The notes under the pieces were generated by a model that saw nothing but the letters and a program-made list of their open reading frames with translations, was not told the DNA's origin and did no database searches. DNA of 36,882 bases from Solidesulfovibrio fructosivorans JJ] (lineage in GTDB: Bacteria; Desulfobacterota; Desulfovibrionia; Desulfovibrionales; Desulfovibrionaceae), in the NCBI RefSeq assembly GCF_000179555.1, contig NZ_AECZ01000040.1:1-36882 (forward strand). The letters are read 5' to 3'. A program made the translations under genes and the position numbers. Position 1 is the stretch's first letter, and every line of letters starts with the position of its first letter. Positions 7,781-36,882 of this stretch are shown here, piece by piece.

Positions 7781-7933
7781 GCGAGCGGGCTCTTGCCCAG
7801 GGGCTCTGCCCCTGACCCCGCCGGGGGACTTGATGTCCCCCGGACCCCCTTTTACCGGGTTGGGCTGGTGGGGTGGGAGTGCGGATGGGTGGGGTTGGTT
7901 TGGTGTTGAGGGGCGGCGGGACGCCGTATGTTA

Positions 7934-34379: not shown

Positions 34380-35939
34380 CTACCGCTTAATCTCCAGGGC
34401 CTTTTGCATCATCTCGTCGGCTGTGGTCACCACTTTGGAGTTGGACTGGAAGGCGCGTTGCAGGGTGATGAGGTTGACCATTTCCGTGGCCATGTCGACG
34501 TTGGACGATTCGAGGGTGTAGCCCGAAACGCTGTCGAACACGCCGGAATTGGCCCGTCCGAGGCTCGCGTCACCCGATTCCTTGGTGGCGGAGAGCAGGT
34601 TGTTGCCTTCCCGGTACAGATCGGTGGGGTTGACGAAGTCCGCCAGGCCCACGACGAACAGCTCGATGGTCTGCCCGTTGGAAAATGTCCCCGAGATCAC
34701 GCCGTTTTCATCCACGCTGGTGCTGAGGAGCGTGCCCGAGGCATAACCGTCCTGTGTGGAGGAAGCGGTATAAGAAGAGGTGGAGTAGTTGGAGGTGCAG
34801 GTGGCGGCGTTTTTGGTATTGGCGCTGTTGAAGCCTGCGTTGGCGCTGGTCAGGGTGCCGATGTCGGCGGCGGTGGCGGGGGCGCTGGCGCTCCAGCTGG
34901 CATTGGAGGACGACAGGCCGTCTTTGTAAACAATGGGTTGGCTGGACAAGATGTTGGAAGAGTTGGAGGCCGAACGGAACGTGGCGTTCAGTTTCGGGTT
35001 TCCTGAACCGTCGAGGCTGGCCTGGGTCCAGGAGGCCAGATCGGTGGGATCGCTCCCGGACGGGGTGAAGGCGGTTTCATTCTCCAACTCGCCCTGGGCG
35101 GAGAAGGTAAGGGTGCCGATCATGAGAACGCCGGCCTTGCTCGTGCCGCTGGTGGTGGAGCTGCCGTCGTCCTCCGGCGGCATCGTCACCATGTATTCCC
35201 AATATTCCTTGCCGTTTTCATCCGACACCTTGGAGTAGTAGGTCGTGAGAGTGTGGGTGCCGCCCTCGGAATCGTAAACCTTGATGGGGGCCGAGTAGGC
35301 GGTGTTGGAGATGGGCGGGCTGTTGTCGGCGTTGTACCTTTTGAACATGCTGAAATAGGGATCGGTGGCGTCGAGGGTCCCGGGTTCGGTCTGGCCGTCG
35401 AGGTTGGTGATCATGGTGACGGCGCTCGTGGCCTGGGCCGCCGAAGTGTAATCCTTGATCTGGATGTCGGTCAGAGTTCCGGTGGTCGGGACCTGGGACA
35501 AGACGGTGCCTGTGCGCTTGGCCGCGGTGACCGCGGTCTGATCCACGGCCCAGCCCTGGACGTTCAACCCCGTTTCGGTCGTCAGGTAGCCGTTGACATC
35601 GAAGTTGAAAGCGCCGTCCCGGGTATAATAGGTCTTATCGGTGCCGGGCTTCTTGACCACGAAATAGCCGCGCTCCCCGTTGATGGCCATGTCCATGGAC
35701 TGGCTGGCGCTGATGGGGCTGCCAGTCGATGTGGTCATGGAGACGCTGCCGACCTGCACGCCGGTGCCGATCTGGCTGCCGTCGGAGGTCCCGCCGGCCA
35801 TCTCGCTGATCATGTCGGCGAAGAGAAGCCGTGAGGACTTGTATCCCGTGGTCCCGGTATTGGCGAGGTTGTTGCCCGTGTTGGCGATGCCCGTGCTGTA
35901 GCTCAAAAGGCCCGACACGCCTGTCCAGATCGCGCTCAT
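34380..35939 (-). CDS. flgE: Flagellar hook protein FlgE
   Basis: Polymerises into the curved hook joining basal body and filament. The 519-residue protein begins with the flagellar rod/hook N-terminus (SAIWTGVSGLLSYSTGIANTGNNLANTGTTGYKSSRLLFADM). It has the GVQVGSVSMTTSTGSPISAS segment and a Ser/Thr/Ala-rich variable domain (about 230-430). It ends with the FlgE/FlgF/FlgG C-terminus (SNVDMATEMVNLITLQRAFQSNSKVVTTADEMMQKAL). ATG 35939 has AAGGAAGGTGG upstream; the open frame to 36209 is non-coding-looking. Length favours FlgE over FlgF/FlgG. A possible sigma54 promoter is at 36032-36048. No other hook genes (flgD, fliK) are in the window, so flgE stands alone or heads an unlinked unit. Confidence 0.92.
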   Translation of the reverse strand: MSAIWTGVSGLLSYSTGIANTGNNLANTGTTGYKSSRLLFADMISEMAGGTSDGSQIGTGVQVGSVSMTTSTGSPISASQSMDMAINGERGYFVVKKPGTDKTYYTRDGAFNFDVNGYLTTETGLNVQGWAVDQTAVTAAKRTGTVLSQVPTTGTLTDIQIKDYTSAAQATSAVTMITNLDGQTEPGTLDATDPYFSMFKRYNADNSPPISNTAYSAPIKVYDSEGGTHTLTTYYSKVSDENGKEYWEYMVTMPPEDDGSSTTSGTSKAGVLMIGTLTFSAQGELENETAFTPSGSDPTDLASWTQASLDGSGNPKLNATFRSASNSSNILSSQPIVYKDGLSSSNASWSASAPATAADIGTLTSANAGFNSANTKNAATCTSNYSTSSYTASSTQDGYASGTLLSTSVDENGVISGTFSNGQTIELFVVGLADFVNPTDLYREGNNLLSATKESGDASLGRANSGVFDSVSGYTLESSNVDMATEMVNLITLQRAFQSNSKVVTTADEMMQKALEIKR

Positions 35940-36214
35940 GATCCACCTTCCTTCTCGAGCGGGCGGCAGAAATTTCCCGTTTCCAGGCGACGGCGGGGGA
36001 GAAGAACGCTCCGTCCGCGACGCCAGCCGACTGCGGGGCCCATGCCAAGGGGCCGCAACCAGGGCGGATTTCCGCGTCGGCCAGCCGGGCGAAACAGAAG
36101 ATTCGGGCTGGCGGCACGAGGGGAAATCCTTGCCGTCCGCCCAGGAGAATGCAGGAGCCGGGCCAGTCGGGCGCGCATGTCGACAGCAAGAAGGGCGTTT
36201 CGAGCGCAAAGTCC
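35940..36214. other. flgE upstream region without a gene
   Basis: Between the flgE start and the first tandem promoter I see only the possible sigma54 site and the flgE ribosome binding site. Open frames here are shadows with no protein-like features. Confidence 0.5.
36032..36048 (-). promoter_or_regulatory. Possible sigma54 promoter for flgE
   Basis: On the minus strand TTGGCATGGGCCCCGCA: GG and GC separated by exactly ten bases, with TTGGCA and GCA matching the -24/-12 consensus, though CC replaces TT before GC. It would give a leader of about 80 bases. Hook genes in related bacteria are commonly RpoN-dependent. Confidence 0.4.
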
Positions 36215-36243
36215 TTGACAGCCGGAGGGGGGAGTTTTAGATA
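36215..36243 (+). promoter_or_regulatory. Tandem promoter 1
   Basis: TTGACA (perfect -35), 17-base spacer, TAGATA. It lacks the upstream A-tract of the other six but keeps their phase. Confidence 0.6.
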
Positions 36244-36316
36244 TTCTTTCCCGCACGACGCAAAGAGTGACGCTTTGGCGTCGATCCGGTGTCGGGCGGA
36301 ATTTGAAAAAAAGGTG

Positions 36317-36345
36317 TTGACGGTTCCCGGAAGGGGACGTAGAAG
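36317..36345 (+). promoter_or_regulatory. Tandem promoter 2
   Basis: TTGACG, 17-base spacer, TAGAAG, with an A7 tract immediately upstream resembling the proximal UP-element subsite. Confidence 0.75.
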
Positions 36346-36380
36346 CACCCTCCCACGTCACGGGCAACCGGGGACGCGGG

Positions 36381-36403
36381 CCGGGGGACGGACGGTTCTC
36401 CGG
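36381..36403 (+). repeat. Inter-promoter hairpin H1
   Basis: CCGGGGGAC, loop GGACG, GTTCTCCGG; all nine positions pair if G-U is allowed. The centre is 29 bases before the -35 box of promoter 3. Confidence 0.6.
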
Positions 36404-36420
36404 GGAGTTGAAAAAAAGTG

Positions 36421-36449
36421 TTGACGGCCCTGGCGACGGGGCATAGAAG
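36421..36449 (+). promoter_or_regulatory. Tandem promoter 3
   Basis: TTGACG, 17-base spacer, TAGAAG, preceded by AAAAAAAGTG, which fits the proximal UP subsite pattern A6-R-N-R exactly. Confidence 0.78.
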
Positions 36450-36482
36450 CACTCCTCCGCGAGACGGGAAACCGGAACGCGG

Positions 36483-36507
36483 CCCGGGAAACGAACGGTT
36501 TCCCGGG
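36483..36507 (+). repeat. Inter-promoter hairpin H2
   Basis: CCCGGGAAAC, loop GAACG, GTTTCCCGGG; a perfect 10-bp stem centred 29 bases before the -35 box of promoter 4. Confidence 0.7.
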
Positions 36508-36523
36508 AAGTTGAAAAAAGGTG

Positions 36524-36552
36524 TTGACGGCCCCGGCGACGGGGCGTAGAAA
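36524..36552 (+). promoter_or_regulatory. Tandem promoter 4
   Basis: TTGACG, 17-base spacer, TAGAAA, preceded by AAAAAAGGTG. Confidence 0.78.
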
Positions 36553-36585
36553 CACCCCTCCGCGTGACGGGAAACCGGAACGCGG

Positions 36586-36610
36586 CCCGGAAGACAAACG
36601 GTTTTCCGGG
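36586..36610 (+). repeat. Inter-promoter hairpin H3
   Basis: CCCGGAAGAC, loop AAACG, GTTTTCCGGG; ten pairs with one G-U, centred 30 bases before the -35 box of promoter 5. Confidence 0.7.
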
Positions 36611-36627
36611 TGACTTGAAAAAAAGTG

Positions 36628-36656
36628 TTGACGGGCCGGGAGCGAGCGGGTAAAGA
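36628..36656 (+). promoter_or_regulatory. Tandem promoter 5
   Basis: TTGACG, 17-base spacer, TAAAGA, preceded by AAAAAAAGTG. The segment after the -10 box diverges from the other units. Confidence 0.72.
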
Positions 36657-36686
36657 ATCCGACTCTGCTTCGGGAAGCCGGGCACG

Positions 36687-36710
36687 GTTCGAAAGCGCAA
36701 GCGATCGAAC
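36687..36710 (+). repeat. Inter-promoter hairpin H4
   Basis: GTTCGA pairs with TCGAAC around an inner GC-GCAA-GC tetraloop. The sequence is unrelated to H1-H3, but the position is the same (29-30 bases before the next -35 box). Confidence 0.55.
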
Positions 36711-36727
36711 GAAGTTGAAAAAAAGTG

Positions 36728-36756
36728 TTGACGGGCCGCGCGGGGATGCGTAGAAG
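36728..36756 (+). promoter_or_regulatory. Tandem promoter 6
   Basis: TTGACG, 17-base spacer, TAGAAG, preceded by AAAAAAAGTG. Confidence 0.78.
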
Positions 36757-36790
36757 CACTCCTCCGCGACGGGAAGCCGGACACGGCCGG

Positions 36791-36802
36791 GCCGCAAACG
36801 GC
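36791..36802 (+). repeat. Inter-promoter hairpin H5
   Basis: GCCG, loop CAAA, CGGC, extendable by GCC/GGC across a two-base bulge; centred about 30 bases before the -35 box of promoter 7. Confidence 0.5.
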
Positions 36803-36826
36803 GGCACGGAAAGTTGAAAAAAGATG

Positions 36827-36855
36827 TTGACACGGTGAGCGGACGGGAGTAACTA
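36827..36855 (+). promoter_or_regulatory. Tandem promoter 7
   Basis: TTGACA (perfect -35), 17-base spacer, TAACTA, preceded by AAAAAAGATG. It is the unit nearest the presumed downstream RNA gene, and the window ends 27 bases after it. Confidence 0.75.
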
Positions 36856-36882
36856 CCCGGGGCTCACGACGGTTCGCCGAAT

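What the first reader, a model, noticed from the sequence alone, without database searches (positions are those of the whole stretch)
36215..36855. Seven phased tandem promoters, probably driving an rRNA operon just outside the window
Seen: seven TTGAC(A/G) boxes, each followed after exactly 17 bases by a TA-starting -10 hexamer (TAGATA, TAGAAG, TAGAAG, TAGAAA, TAAAGA, TAGAAG, TAACTA), at steps of 99-104 bases. Six have A6-A7 plus a purine-ended triplet right before the -35 box, the proximal UP-element pattern. Known: rRNA operons often use two to five stacked promoters (E. coli two, some actinobacteria more). Seven with this regularity is extreme. The step is close to ten helical turns, so all promoters face the same side of the DNA. 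The weak, shared TAGAAG -10 box and GC-rich discriminators would suit growth-rate and ppGpp control (inference).
Basis: partly seen in the sequence, partly recalled or inferred. Interest (0 to 1): 0.85.

Follow-up and report, generated by a model that had tools for sequence, protein, structure and literature searches.

The report
Seven-promoter array before ribosomal RNA operon
A sulfate-reducing bacterium appears to start its ribosomal RNA operon from seven similar promoters in a row, and most of them are followed by the same kind of folded two-hairpin RNA, so a whole start-plus-leader module seems to have been copied again and again.

Summary
In detail: seven TTGAC(A/G)-17-TA sites lie at 36215-36855, the only seven on the window's + strand (chance 0.006 per region). 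The window is a whole draft contig of a Solidesulfovibrio genome. It ends 27 bases after P7, and its assembly holds no 16S.

Relatives settle the target. In two (G003, G007) the neighbouring flgE gene faces 16S with a five-promoter array between. Window P5-P7 align collinearly with P3-P5 of G004, whose 16S starts 181 bases past its last -35. So 16S should begin about 125 bases beyond the window.

Helical phasing is not supported. The fold is shared by relatives, covaries, and favours G-U over A-C pairs. The same promoter stands singly before tRNA genes without the hairpins.

Against: an E. coli-type promoter scan finds none of the seven, and start sites and hairpin function are untested. Multi-promoter rrn operons are known (five in M. 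chelonae and H. cutirubrum). Seven, with a repeated structured leader, is a new variant.

The parts
34380..35939 (-). flgE-type flagellar hook protein gene, divergent from the array; syntenic marker
   Evidence: Pfam Flg_bbr_C, FlgE_D2, LlgE_F_G_D1; orthologues face 16S in G003 and G007
36215..36243 (+). P1: TTGACA-17-TAGATA, no A-tract; atypical first promoter
   Evidence: among the units compared, closest to the first units of G012 and G013 (64 and 63%)
36251..36299 (+). GC-rich foldable stretch after P1 (does not share the two-hairpin plan)
   Evidence: z -3.6
36306..36345 (+). A7 tract and P2 (TTGACG-17-TAGAAG)
36352..36403 (+). two abutting hairpins of unit 2 (HP1 36352-36380, HP2 36381-36403)
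   Evidence: model R1 49.3 bits; fold z -1.2
36411..36449 (+). A7 tract and P3 (TTGACG-17-TAGAAG)
36457..36507 (+). two abutting hairpins of unit 3 (HP1 36457-36482, HP2 36483-36507)
   Evidence: z -3.9; a seed sequence of model R1
36514..36552 (+). A6 tract and P4 (TTGACG-17-TAGAAA)
36560..36610 (+). two abutting hairpins of unit 4 (HP1 36560-36585, HP2 36586-36610); unit 4 is 88% identical to unit 3
   Evidence: z -4.4; a seed sequence of model R1
36618..36656 (+). A7 tract and P5 (TTGACG-17-TAAAGA)
   Evidence: unit 85% identical to G004 unit 3
36666..36710 (+). two hairpins of unit 5 (36666-36684 and 36687-36710, 2 nt apart)
   Evidence: weak z (-0.5); no model hit at E<=1
36718..36756 (+). 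A7 tract and P6 (TTGACG-17-TAGAAG)
36764..36809 (+). two abutting hairpins of unit 6 (HP1 36764-36786, HP2 36787-36809)
   Evidence: model R1 30.3 bits; weak z (-0.7)
36817..36855 (+). A6 tract and P7 (TTGACA-17-TAACTA); counterpart of the last promoter of G004, 181 bases before its 16S
36856..36882 (+). start of the 16S-proximal leader, cut by the contig end
   Evidence: aligns with the G004 leader; contig length 36882

Best explanation
The array is the promoter and leader region of an rRNA operon whose 16S gene starts about 125 bases beyond the contig end (shown by relatives, not in this assembly). It consists of seven promoters of a stable-RNA type, six with an A6-A7 proximal UP-like tract. 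Five of the six inter-promoter units (2-6) carry a similar transcribed leader: two GC-rich hairpins, HP1 starting 7-10 nt after the -10 box and HP2 ending 16-17 nt before the next -35. The array grew by tandem duplication of the roughly 103-base module. Inferred: all promoters fire in the same direction and their output adds, so one operon can be loaded heavily in fast growth. Inferred with less confidence (about 0.35): because polymerases from upstream starts must run through promoters that are themselves occupied, the hairpins fold behind each polymerase as it reaches the next promoter, hinder backtracking and R-loops, and so keep the convoy moving into the boxA-like antitermination site that relatives carry before 16S. 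The confidence below is for the rrn promoter-leader array; I lowered it from 0.90 after the consensus promoter scan found none of the seven.
For: rrn identity: 16S was found in 4 of 14 genus genomes. In two of them, G003 and G007, it lies next to flgE in divergent orientation with five promoters between; in the other two, G005 and G008, the 16S found is not beside flgE, but G005's has the same array (L013). G003's second operon has it too (L016). P5-P7 are collinear with G004 P3-P5, whose 16S starts 181 bases past its last -35; its 276 visible bases of 16S match G003 at 260 of 277 alignment columns. Of the 12 arrays, all 6 with at least 90 bases left after the last promoter have a boxA-like TCTTTGACAATTAAATAGCGAG 74-86 bases after its -35; the other 6, the window included, are cut off within 64 bases. 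Stable-RNA promoter: the same promoter stands singly before tRNA-Arg in the own genome, and a similar one before tRNA-Asn in G012. Hairpins: 40 of 40 units fold better than the mean of their shuffles (summed dG -1141 against -928, sd 20); 24 of 40 fold as two stems 0-1 nt apart with the junction at 25-37 nt against 3.3 expected. Covariation on the fitted alignment: 10 of 17 pairs change on both sides, 81 cells against at most 29 in slid controls and 16 in shuffles; G-U 28 cells against A-C 6. Specificity: 23 of 23 genus-wide model hits at E<=0.01 lie in tandem-promoter arrays, 8 of them model seeds. No terminator-like site in 35940-36882. Duplication: window units 3/4 88%, G002 C17 units 2/4 91%, 3/5 83%.
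Against: No 16S and no boxA-like sequence in the own assembly, so the link rests on relatives. No transcription start is mapped, and an E. coli-type sigma-70 scan finds none of the seven. Window units 5 and 6 fold only slightly better than shuffles (z -0.5, -0.7) and unit 1 does not share the plan. The - strand also folds better than shuffles (mean z -1.32 against -1.77 for +). 16 of 40 units miss the strict two-stem criterion; 11 of the 16 are predicted with an outer stem closing both hairpins. RNAalifold found no common structure on the plain 34-sequence alignment. The large covariation count comes from an alignment fitted to the model; on the unfitted one of 8 chosen units 3 pairs change on both sides, a number that 127 of 500 shuffles reach, though the 8 such cells are reached by none. 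Of 7 weaker model hits (E 0.01-0.5) in the genus, 3 lie outside known arrays. The anti-backtracking role is inference from geometry.
Confidence: 0.88

Rival explanations
1. The repeats are DNA elements: inverted repeats that bind a nucleoid or regulatory protein dimer between promoters, and their folding as RNA is incidental.
For: HP2 arms are inverted repeats of 9-10 bases in several units, the - strand also folds better than shuffles (mean z -1.32), and activator sites upstream of rrn promoters are common (recalled, Fis in E. coli).
Against: G-U pairs outnumber A-C 28 to 6 on the transcribed strand (fitted alignment), and units fold better as the + than the - strand beyond shuffles (difference -105.8 against -47.5, sd 17.2). 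The arm sequence varies between units while pairing is kept, unlike a binding site. The repeat finder lists no inverted repeat of 12 bases or more.
Confidence: 0.12
2. Only one or two promoters (probably the last) matter; the others are weak remnants kept alive by unequal crossing-over and gene conversion between rrn copies.
For: Near-identical neighbouring units show recent duplication. Relatives have five; in rrn loci of other genera I could recognise from none to four. The -10 boxes are weak by E. coli standards.
Against: Exact 17-base spacing and TTGAC in all seven. Units only about 70% identical, such as 5 and 6, keep the spacing, the A-tract and the -35, which suggests selection and not merely recent copying.
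Confidence: 0.2
3. The promoters fire on different signals (P1 and P7 differ in -35 or -10 box and leader from P2-P6), so the array is a growth-state selector and not a multiplier.
For: P1 lacks the A-tract and shared leader; P7 has TTGACA and TAACTA. Passages read report unequal promoter use in M. kumamotonense and H. cutirubrum (PMC10218544, PMC4983044).
Against: P2, P3, P4 and P6 are nearly identical in -35, spacing, -10 and A-tract, which gives no basis for separate control.
Confidence: 0.3

Closest known systems
Multi-promoter bacterial rRNA operons (E. coli rrn P1-P2; mycobacterial rrnA, five promoters in M. chelonae per PMC10218544)
   Same: Several promoters in one direction before 16S, UP-like A-tract, GC-rich discriminator, boxA-like site in the leader of relatives.
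   Different: Seven similar modules at a regular step of about 102 bases, most with a two-hairpin transcribed leader; no such repeated leader was named in the passages read.
Haloarchaeal rRNA promoter arrays (H. cutirubrum, as many as five promoters per PMC4983044)
   Same: Stacked rRNA promoters upstream of 16S.
   Different: Archaeal promoters; no relation by descent is implied; fewer promoters.
HK022 putRNA (PMC9378689, passages)
   Same: About 70 nt, two adjacent stem-loops; putL is transcribed directly downstream of its promoter; acts on the elongating polymerase.
   Different: Phage element. Here the two stems together are shorter (about 50 nt), are repeated with the promoters, and polymerase binding is untested. 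No Rfam family matched at its cut-off.
rrn nut-like leader (boxB-boxA; motif recalled)
   Same: In relatives the leader after the last promoter has hairpins followed by a boxA-like sequence.
   Different: Internal units have hairpins, but the window has no boxA-like sequence within two mismatches.

Membership tests
Tandem-promoter rRNA operon | 16S gene directly downstream | tested here: met
   By relatives only: G003, G007, G004; own assembly lacks 16S
Tandem-promoter rRNA operon | several sigma-70-type promoters in one direction | tested here: met
   Seven TTGACR-17-TA sites, chance 0.006; but a strict TTGACA/TATAAT scan finds 0
Tandem-promoter rRNA operon | promoters active, with mapped starts | not testable with these tools
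   No expression data; indirect support from single copies before tRNA-Arg and tRNA-Asn
Tandem-promoter rRNA operon | boxA antitermination site in the leader | tested here: inconclusive
   Present in 6 of 6 relatives' arrays long enough to show it (motif recalled); beyond the contig end in the window (0 of 1)
Growth-rate and ppGpp controlled stable-RNA promoter | response to ppGpp/DksA and initiating NTP | not testable with these tools
   GC-rich discriminator seen only
put-type antitermination RNA | two adjacent stem-loops right after the promoter | tested here: met
   24 of 40 units against 3.3 expected; in the window units 2, 3, 4 and 6 strictly, 5 with a 2-nt gap
put-type antitermination RNA | match to a known RNA family | tested here: not met
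   No Rfam match at gathering score; three sub-threshold hits at E 1.9-4. Whether Rfam holds put was not checked
put-type antitermination RNA | binds RNA polymerase and suppresses termination | not testable with these tools
   needs in vitro transcription
Intrinsic terminator | GC hairpin followed by a T-run | tested here: not met
   0 terminator-like sites in 35940-36882, shuffles mean 1.8; HP2 is followed by TTGAAAAAAA-type sequence

The most novel reading that the evidence does not exclude
Each module pairs a promoter with a put-like nascent RNA that binds the polymerase just started there and makes it resistant to pausing, backtracking and collision. That would let seven promoters in a row feed one rRNA operon without blocking one another: a chromosomal, rRNA-serving, factor-independent antitermination RNA copied with the promoters.
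Probability: 0.15. Interest if true: 0.85.

Novelty: new variant of a known kind. Interest (0 to 1): 0.6.

Why it matters
How many promoters one operon can use before they obstruct each other is a testable question, and Solidesulfovibrio supplies a natural series (five, at least six, seven) with one module design. If the hairpins solve the traffic problem, they would be a compact means of stacking promoters. The shared promoter (A-tract, TTGACG, 17, TAGA, pyrimidine-rich start), also seen at rrn loci of several other Desulfovibrionaceae genera, gives a stable-RNA promoter definition to test. In 8 of 11 genus genomes the contig ends close to flgE on this side, which may be why the arrays are easily missed.

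Tried and rejected
Helical phasing of the promoters: tested on the window and on 46 steps from 12 arrays, rejected. Intrinsic terminators between promoters: none. A known RNA family: none. Finding 16S or the boxA leader in the own assembly: none. RNAalifold on the plain MAFFT alignment of 34 of 40 units gave no pairs, I think because stems are misaligned; a second alignment of 13 units (A3) was made and not used. I then used 8 chosen units that MAFFT aligns well (A2, A4), built model R1 and let it align the rest. Dropped before the unit counts: 6 first units that lack the shared plan (win_1, G008_1, G012_1, G013_1, G001_1, G009_1); other first units were kept. The second array of G007 (L125) was left out because part of it reads N. 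The first shuffle test cut five units too short and was redone. One search failed on a script error and was rerun. The one model hit outside the genus (G026, L163) looks by eye like an unrelated hairpin. The window hit at 7820 on the - strand and the weak hits in G011 (two) and G013 C9 may be chance and were not followed. Limits: one search scored only 23 candidates per genome with stricter filters, 150, so weak matches can be missed. Paper searches listed no account of Desulfovibrionaceae rrn promoters or of seven tandem rrn promoters; I saw listings with abstract openings, and passages of three papers; the library lacks most subscription journals.

Full report
WHAT IS THERE. Seven TTGAC(A/G) boxes, each followed by exactly 17 bases and a TA-starting hexamer, lie at 36215, 36317, 36421, 36524, 36628, 36728 and 36827 on the + strand, at steps of 102, 104, 103, 104, 100 and 99 bases. 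They are the only seven TTGAC[AG]-N17-TA sites on that strand of the 36,882-base window; the other strand has one, elsewhere. Simulated sequence with the region's dinucleotide frequencies gives 0.0063 such sites on average and never more than one in 20,000 runs. Tandem Repeats Finder reports a 103-base period over 36303-36634. Six promoters (P2-P7) carry A6 or A7 shortly before the -35; P1 does not.

WHERE IT LIES. The window is a complete contig (C40, 36,882 bases) of a 75-contig draft assembly. The closest relatives of its flgE protein come from records named Solidesulfovibrio or Desulfovibrio sp.. The contig stops 27 bases after P7. The assembly holds no match to the 16S model (0 of 1) and none to the boxA-like leader of relatives with up to two mismatches (0 of 1). 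Contig ends near flgE are common: of the 11 genus genomes with a near full-length flgE match of 66-100% identity, 8, the own included, have the contig end within 1 kb upstream of flgE (positions; contig lengths).

WHAT IT DRIVES. 16S was found in 4 of 14 genus genomes. In G003 flgE (C1:3039652-3041205, +) and 16S (C1:3037306-3038854, -) diverge; in G007 flgE (C87:74741-76294, -) and 16S (from C87:77102, +) do too. Between them are five promoters: four of the same make and a first one with an 18-base spacing. In G005 and G008 the 16S found is not beside flgE; G005's has the same array, and so has the second operon of G003 (L013, L016). In G004 an array of five precedes 16S (L123), and its units 3-5 align collinearly with window units 5-7 to the end of the contig. 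The last promoters share TTGACA, TAACT(A/T) and GGCTCACGACGG. G004's 16S starts 181 bases after the last -35, and its 276 visible 16S bases match G003 at 260 of 277 alignment columns. P7 is therefore probably the last promoter and 16S should begin near position 37008. All 6 arrays with at least 90 bases after the last promoter have a boxA-like sequence 74-86 bases after its -35; the other 6 of 12, the window included, are cut off within 64 bases. A second sign: the same promoter (A-tract, TTGACG, 17 bases, TAGACA) stands alone just before a tRNA-Arg gene in the own genome (L004: -35 at 2095, tRNA 2138-2214), and a similar one before tRNA-Asn in G012 (L101). Model R1 finds no hairpin unit in either locus. 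Other tRNA genes were not surveyed.

Between one -10 box and the next A-tract the transcribed sequence folds into two GC-rich hairpins with little or no gap. HP1 starts typically 7 nt after the -10, often with a CGG-GAAA-CCG tip; HP2 often has an AACG loop and ends a median 17 nt (range 14-19, 29 units) before the next -35. I gathered 46 inter-promoter units from 12 arrays and set aside 6 atypical first units. Of the remaining 40, all fold better than the mean of their dinucleotide shuffles (summed energy -1141 against -928, sd 20, kcal/mol). The + strand exceeds the - strand beyond the shuffles (-105.8 against -47.5, sd 17.2), though the - strand also folds better than shuffles (mean z -1.32 against -1.77). 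In 24 of 40 the fold is two stems 0-1 nt apart with the junction at 25-37 nt; shuffles give 3.3. In another 11 the predicted fold has an outer stem closing a junction. Units are related, so these numbers are not independent trials.

COVARIATION. On a plain MAFFT alignment of 8 chosen units (A2) the structure pairs in 90.4% of cells against at most 53.7% when slid. Three HP2 pairs change on both sides, which 127 of 500 shuffles also reach; the 8 cells with such a change are reached by none. On the model-fitted alignment of 38 distinct matches, 10 of 17 pairs change on both sides, in 81 cells against at most 29 when slid and 16 in shuffles. That alignment leans towards the structure by construction and includes one probable chance match. 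G-U pairs number 28 and A-C mismatches 6; a DNA palindrome would not favour one, an RNA would. RNAalifold on the 34-sequence alignment found nothing. Within the window the case rests on units 2-4 (R1 scores 49-73 bits, two of them seeds); unit 6 scores 30 bits, unit 5 was not hit, and units 5 and 6 fold little better than shuffles.

DISTRIBUTION. Model R1, which contains neither A-tract nor promoter, was run on the 14 genus genomes. All 23 hits at E<=0.01 fall in tandem-promoter arrays, 8 of them its own seeds; of 7 hits at E 0.01-0.5, 4 do and 3 do not (arrays). Over 247 genomes of the class it hit 8 at E<=0.05: seven of the genus and one that looks like an unrelated hairpin. It hit none of 16 rrn loci of other genera at E<=1. 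Tandem promoters themselves are wider. A two-promoter pattern with steps of 88-113 bases occurs in 52 of 348 genomes of the class: 11 of the 14 in the genus (44 hits) and 41 others (88 hits). The reversed-pattern control gives 22 hits in 20 genomes, none in the genus, by my count of the table, so part of the non-genus hits is chance. The longest chains that I saw outside the genus have four promoters (G022, G057 and G068; L072 and L073), some cut by contig ends. In the genus I saw five (G003, G005, G007, G004, G008), at least six (G002 C17) and seven (window). Several other genera also have a hairpin soon after the -10, though not one that R1 recognises.

HOW IT GREW. Window units 3 and 4 are 88% identical; in G002 C17 units 2 and 4 are 91% and units 3 and 5 are 83% identical. 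This is what tandem duplication of one or two modules would leave. Window units 5 and 6, 70% identical, still keep the -35, spacing and A-tract, which speaks for selection. The two operons of G003 match at 467 of 481 columns from P2 to 16S but only 168 of 332 in the 300 bases upstream of P1, which fits gene conversion between operons.

HOW IT WORKS. Shown: sequence, synteny in relatives, paired structure conserved with RNA-type substitutions. Inferred: all seven fire into one operon and their output adds. The step of about 102 bases is just above the stretch one promoter-bound polymerase covers (recalled, about 80 bases), so neighbours could be occupied at once. A polymerase from upstream would have HP2 folding behind it as it enters the next promoter, which would oppose backtracking. 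That the hairpins are absent where the promoter stands alone before a tRNA (two cases) fits a role in elongation or leader processing better than one in initiation. Helical phasing plays no part that I could detect.

COMPARISON. Passages read state five promoters for M. chelonae (PMC10218544) and as many as five for H. cutirubrum (PMC4983044). HK022 putRNA is about 70 nt, has two stem-loops, and putL lies just downstream of its promoter (PMC9378689, passages); the resemblance is in plan only, and polymerase binding is untested. Ten paper searches listed no account of these arrays. I file it as a tandem-promoter rRNA operon, a new variant by number and by the repeated structured leader, and do not file the hairpins as put.

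Noticed in passing
L004:2095-3303 (G000 contig C6): The same promoter, single and without hairpins, just before tRNA-Arg(ACG) in the own genome; a phage-integrase-family gene (PF00589, E 5e-25) follows the tRNA, as if an element had inserted there.
   Followed up: partly
L101:1413-1543 (G012): A similar single promoter directly before tRNA-Asn(GTT).
   Followed up: partly
window 36882; L041-L046, L049: In 8 of 11 genus genomes with a near full-length flgE match the contig ends within 1 kb upstream of flgE, so the array is often lost in drafts.
   Followed up: yes
L012, L016 (G003): Two rrn operons of one genome match at 467 of 481 columns from P2 to 16S but 168 of 332 upstream of P1, as if gene conversion stops near P1.
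   Followed up: partly
units in L012, L013, L016, L015, L123, L124, L126, L128, L049: In 11 of 40 units the predicted fold has an outer stem that closes the hairpins into a junction.
   Followed up: no
L072; G156:C31: Other Desulfovibrionaceae have tandem promoters at steps near 90 bases, with a single hairpin such as CCTGCC-tgac-GGCAGG after each.
   Followed up: partly
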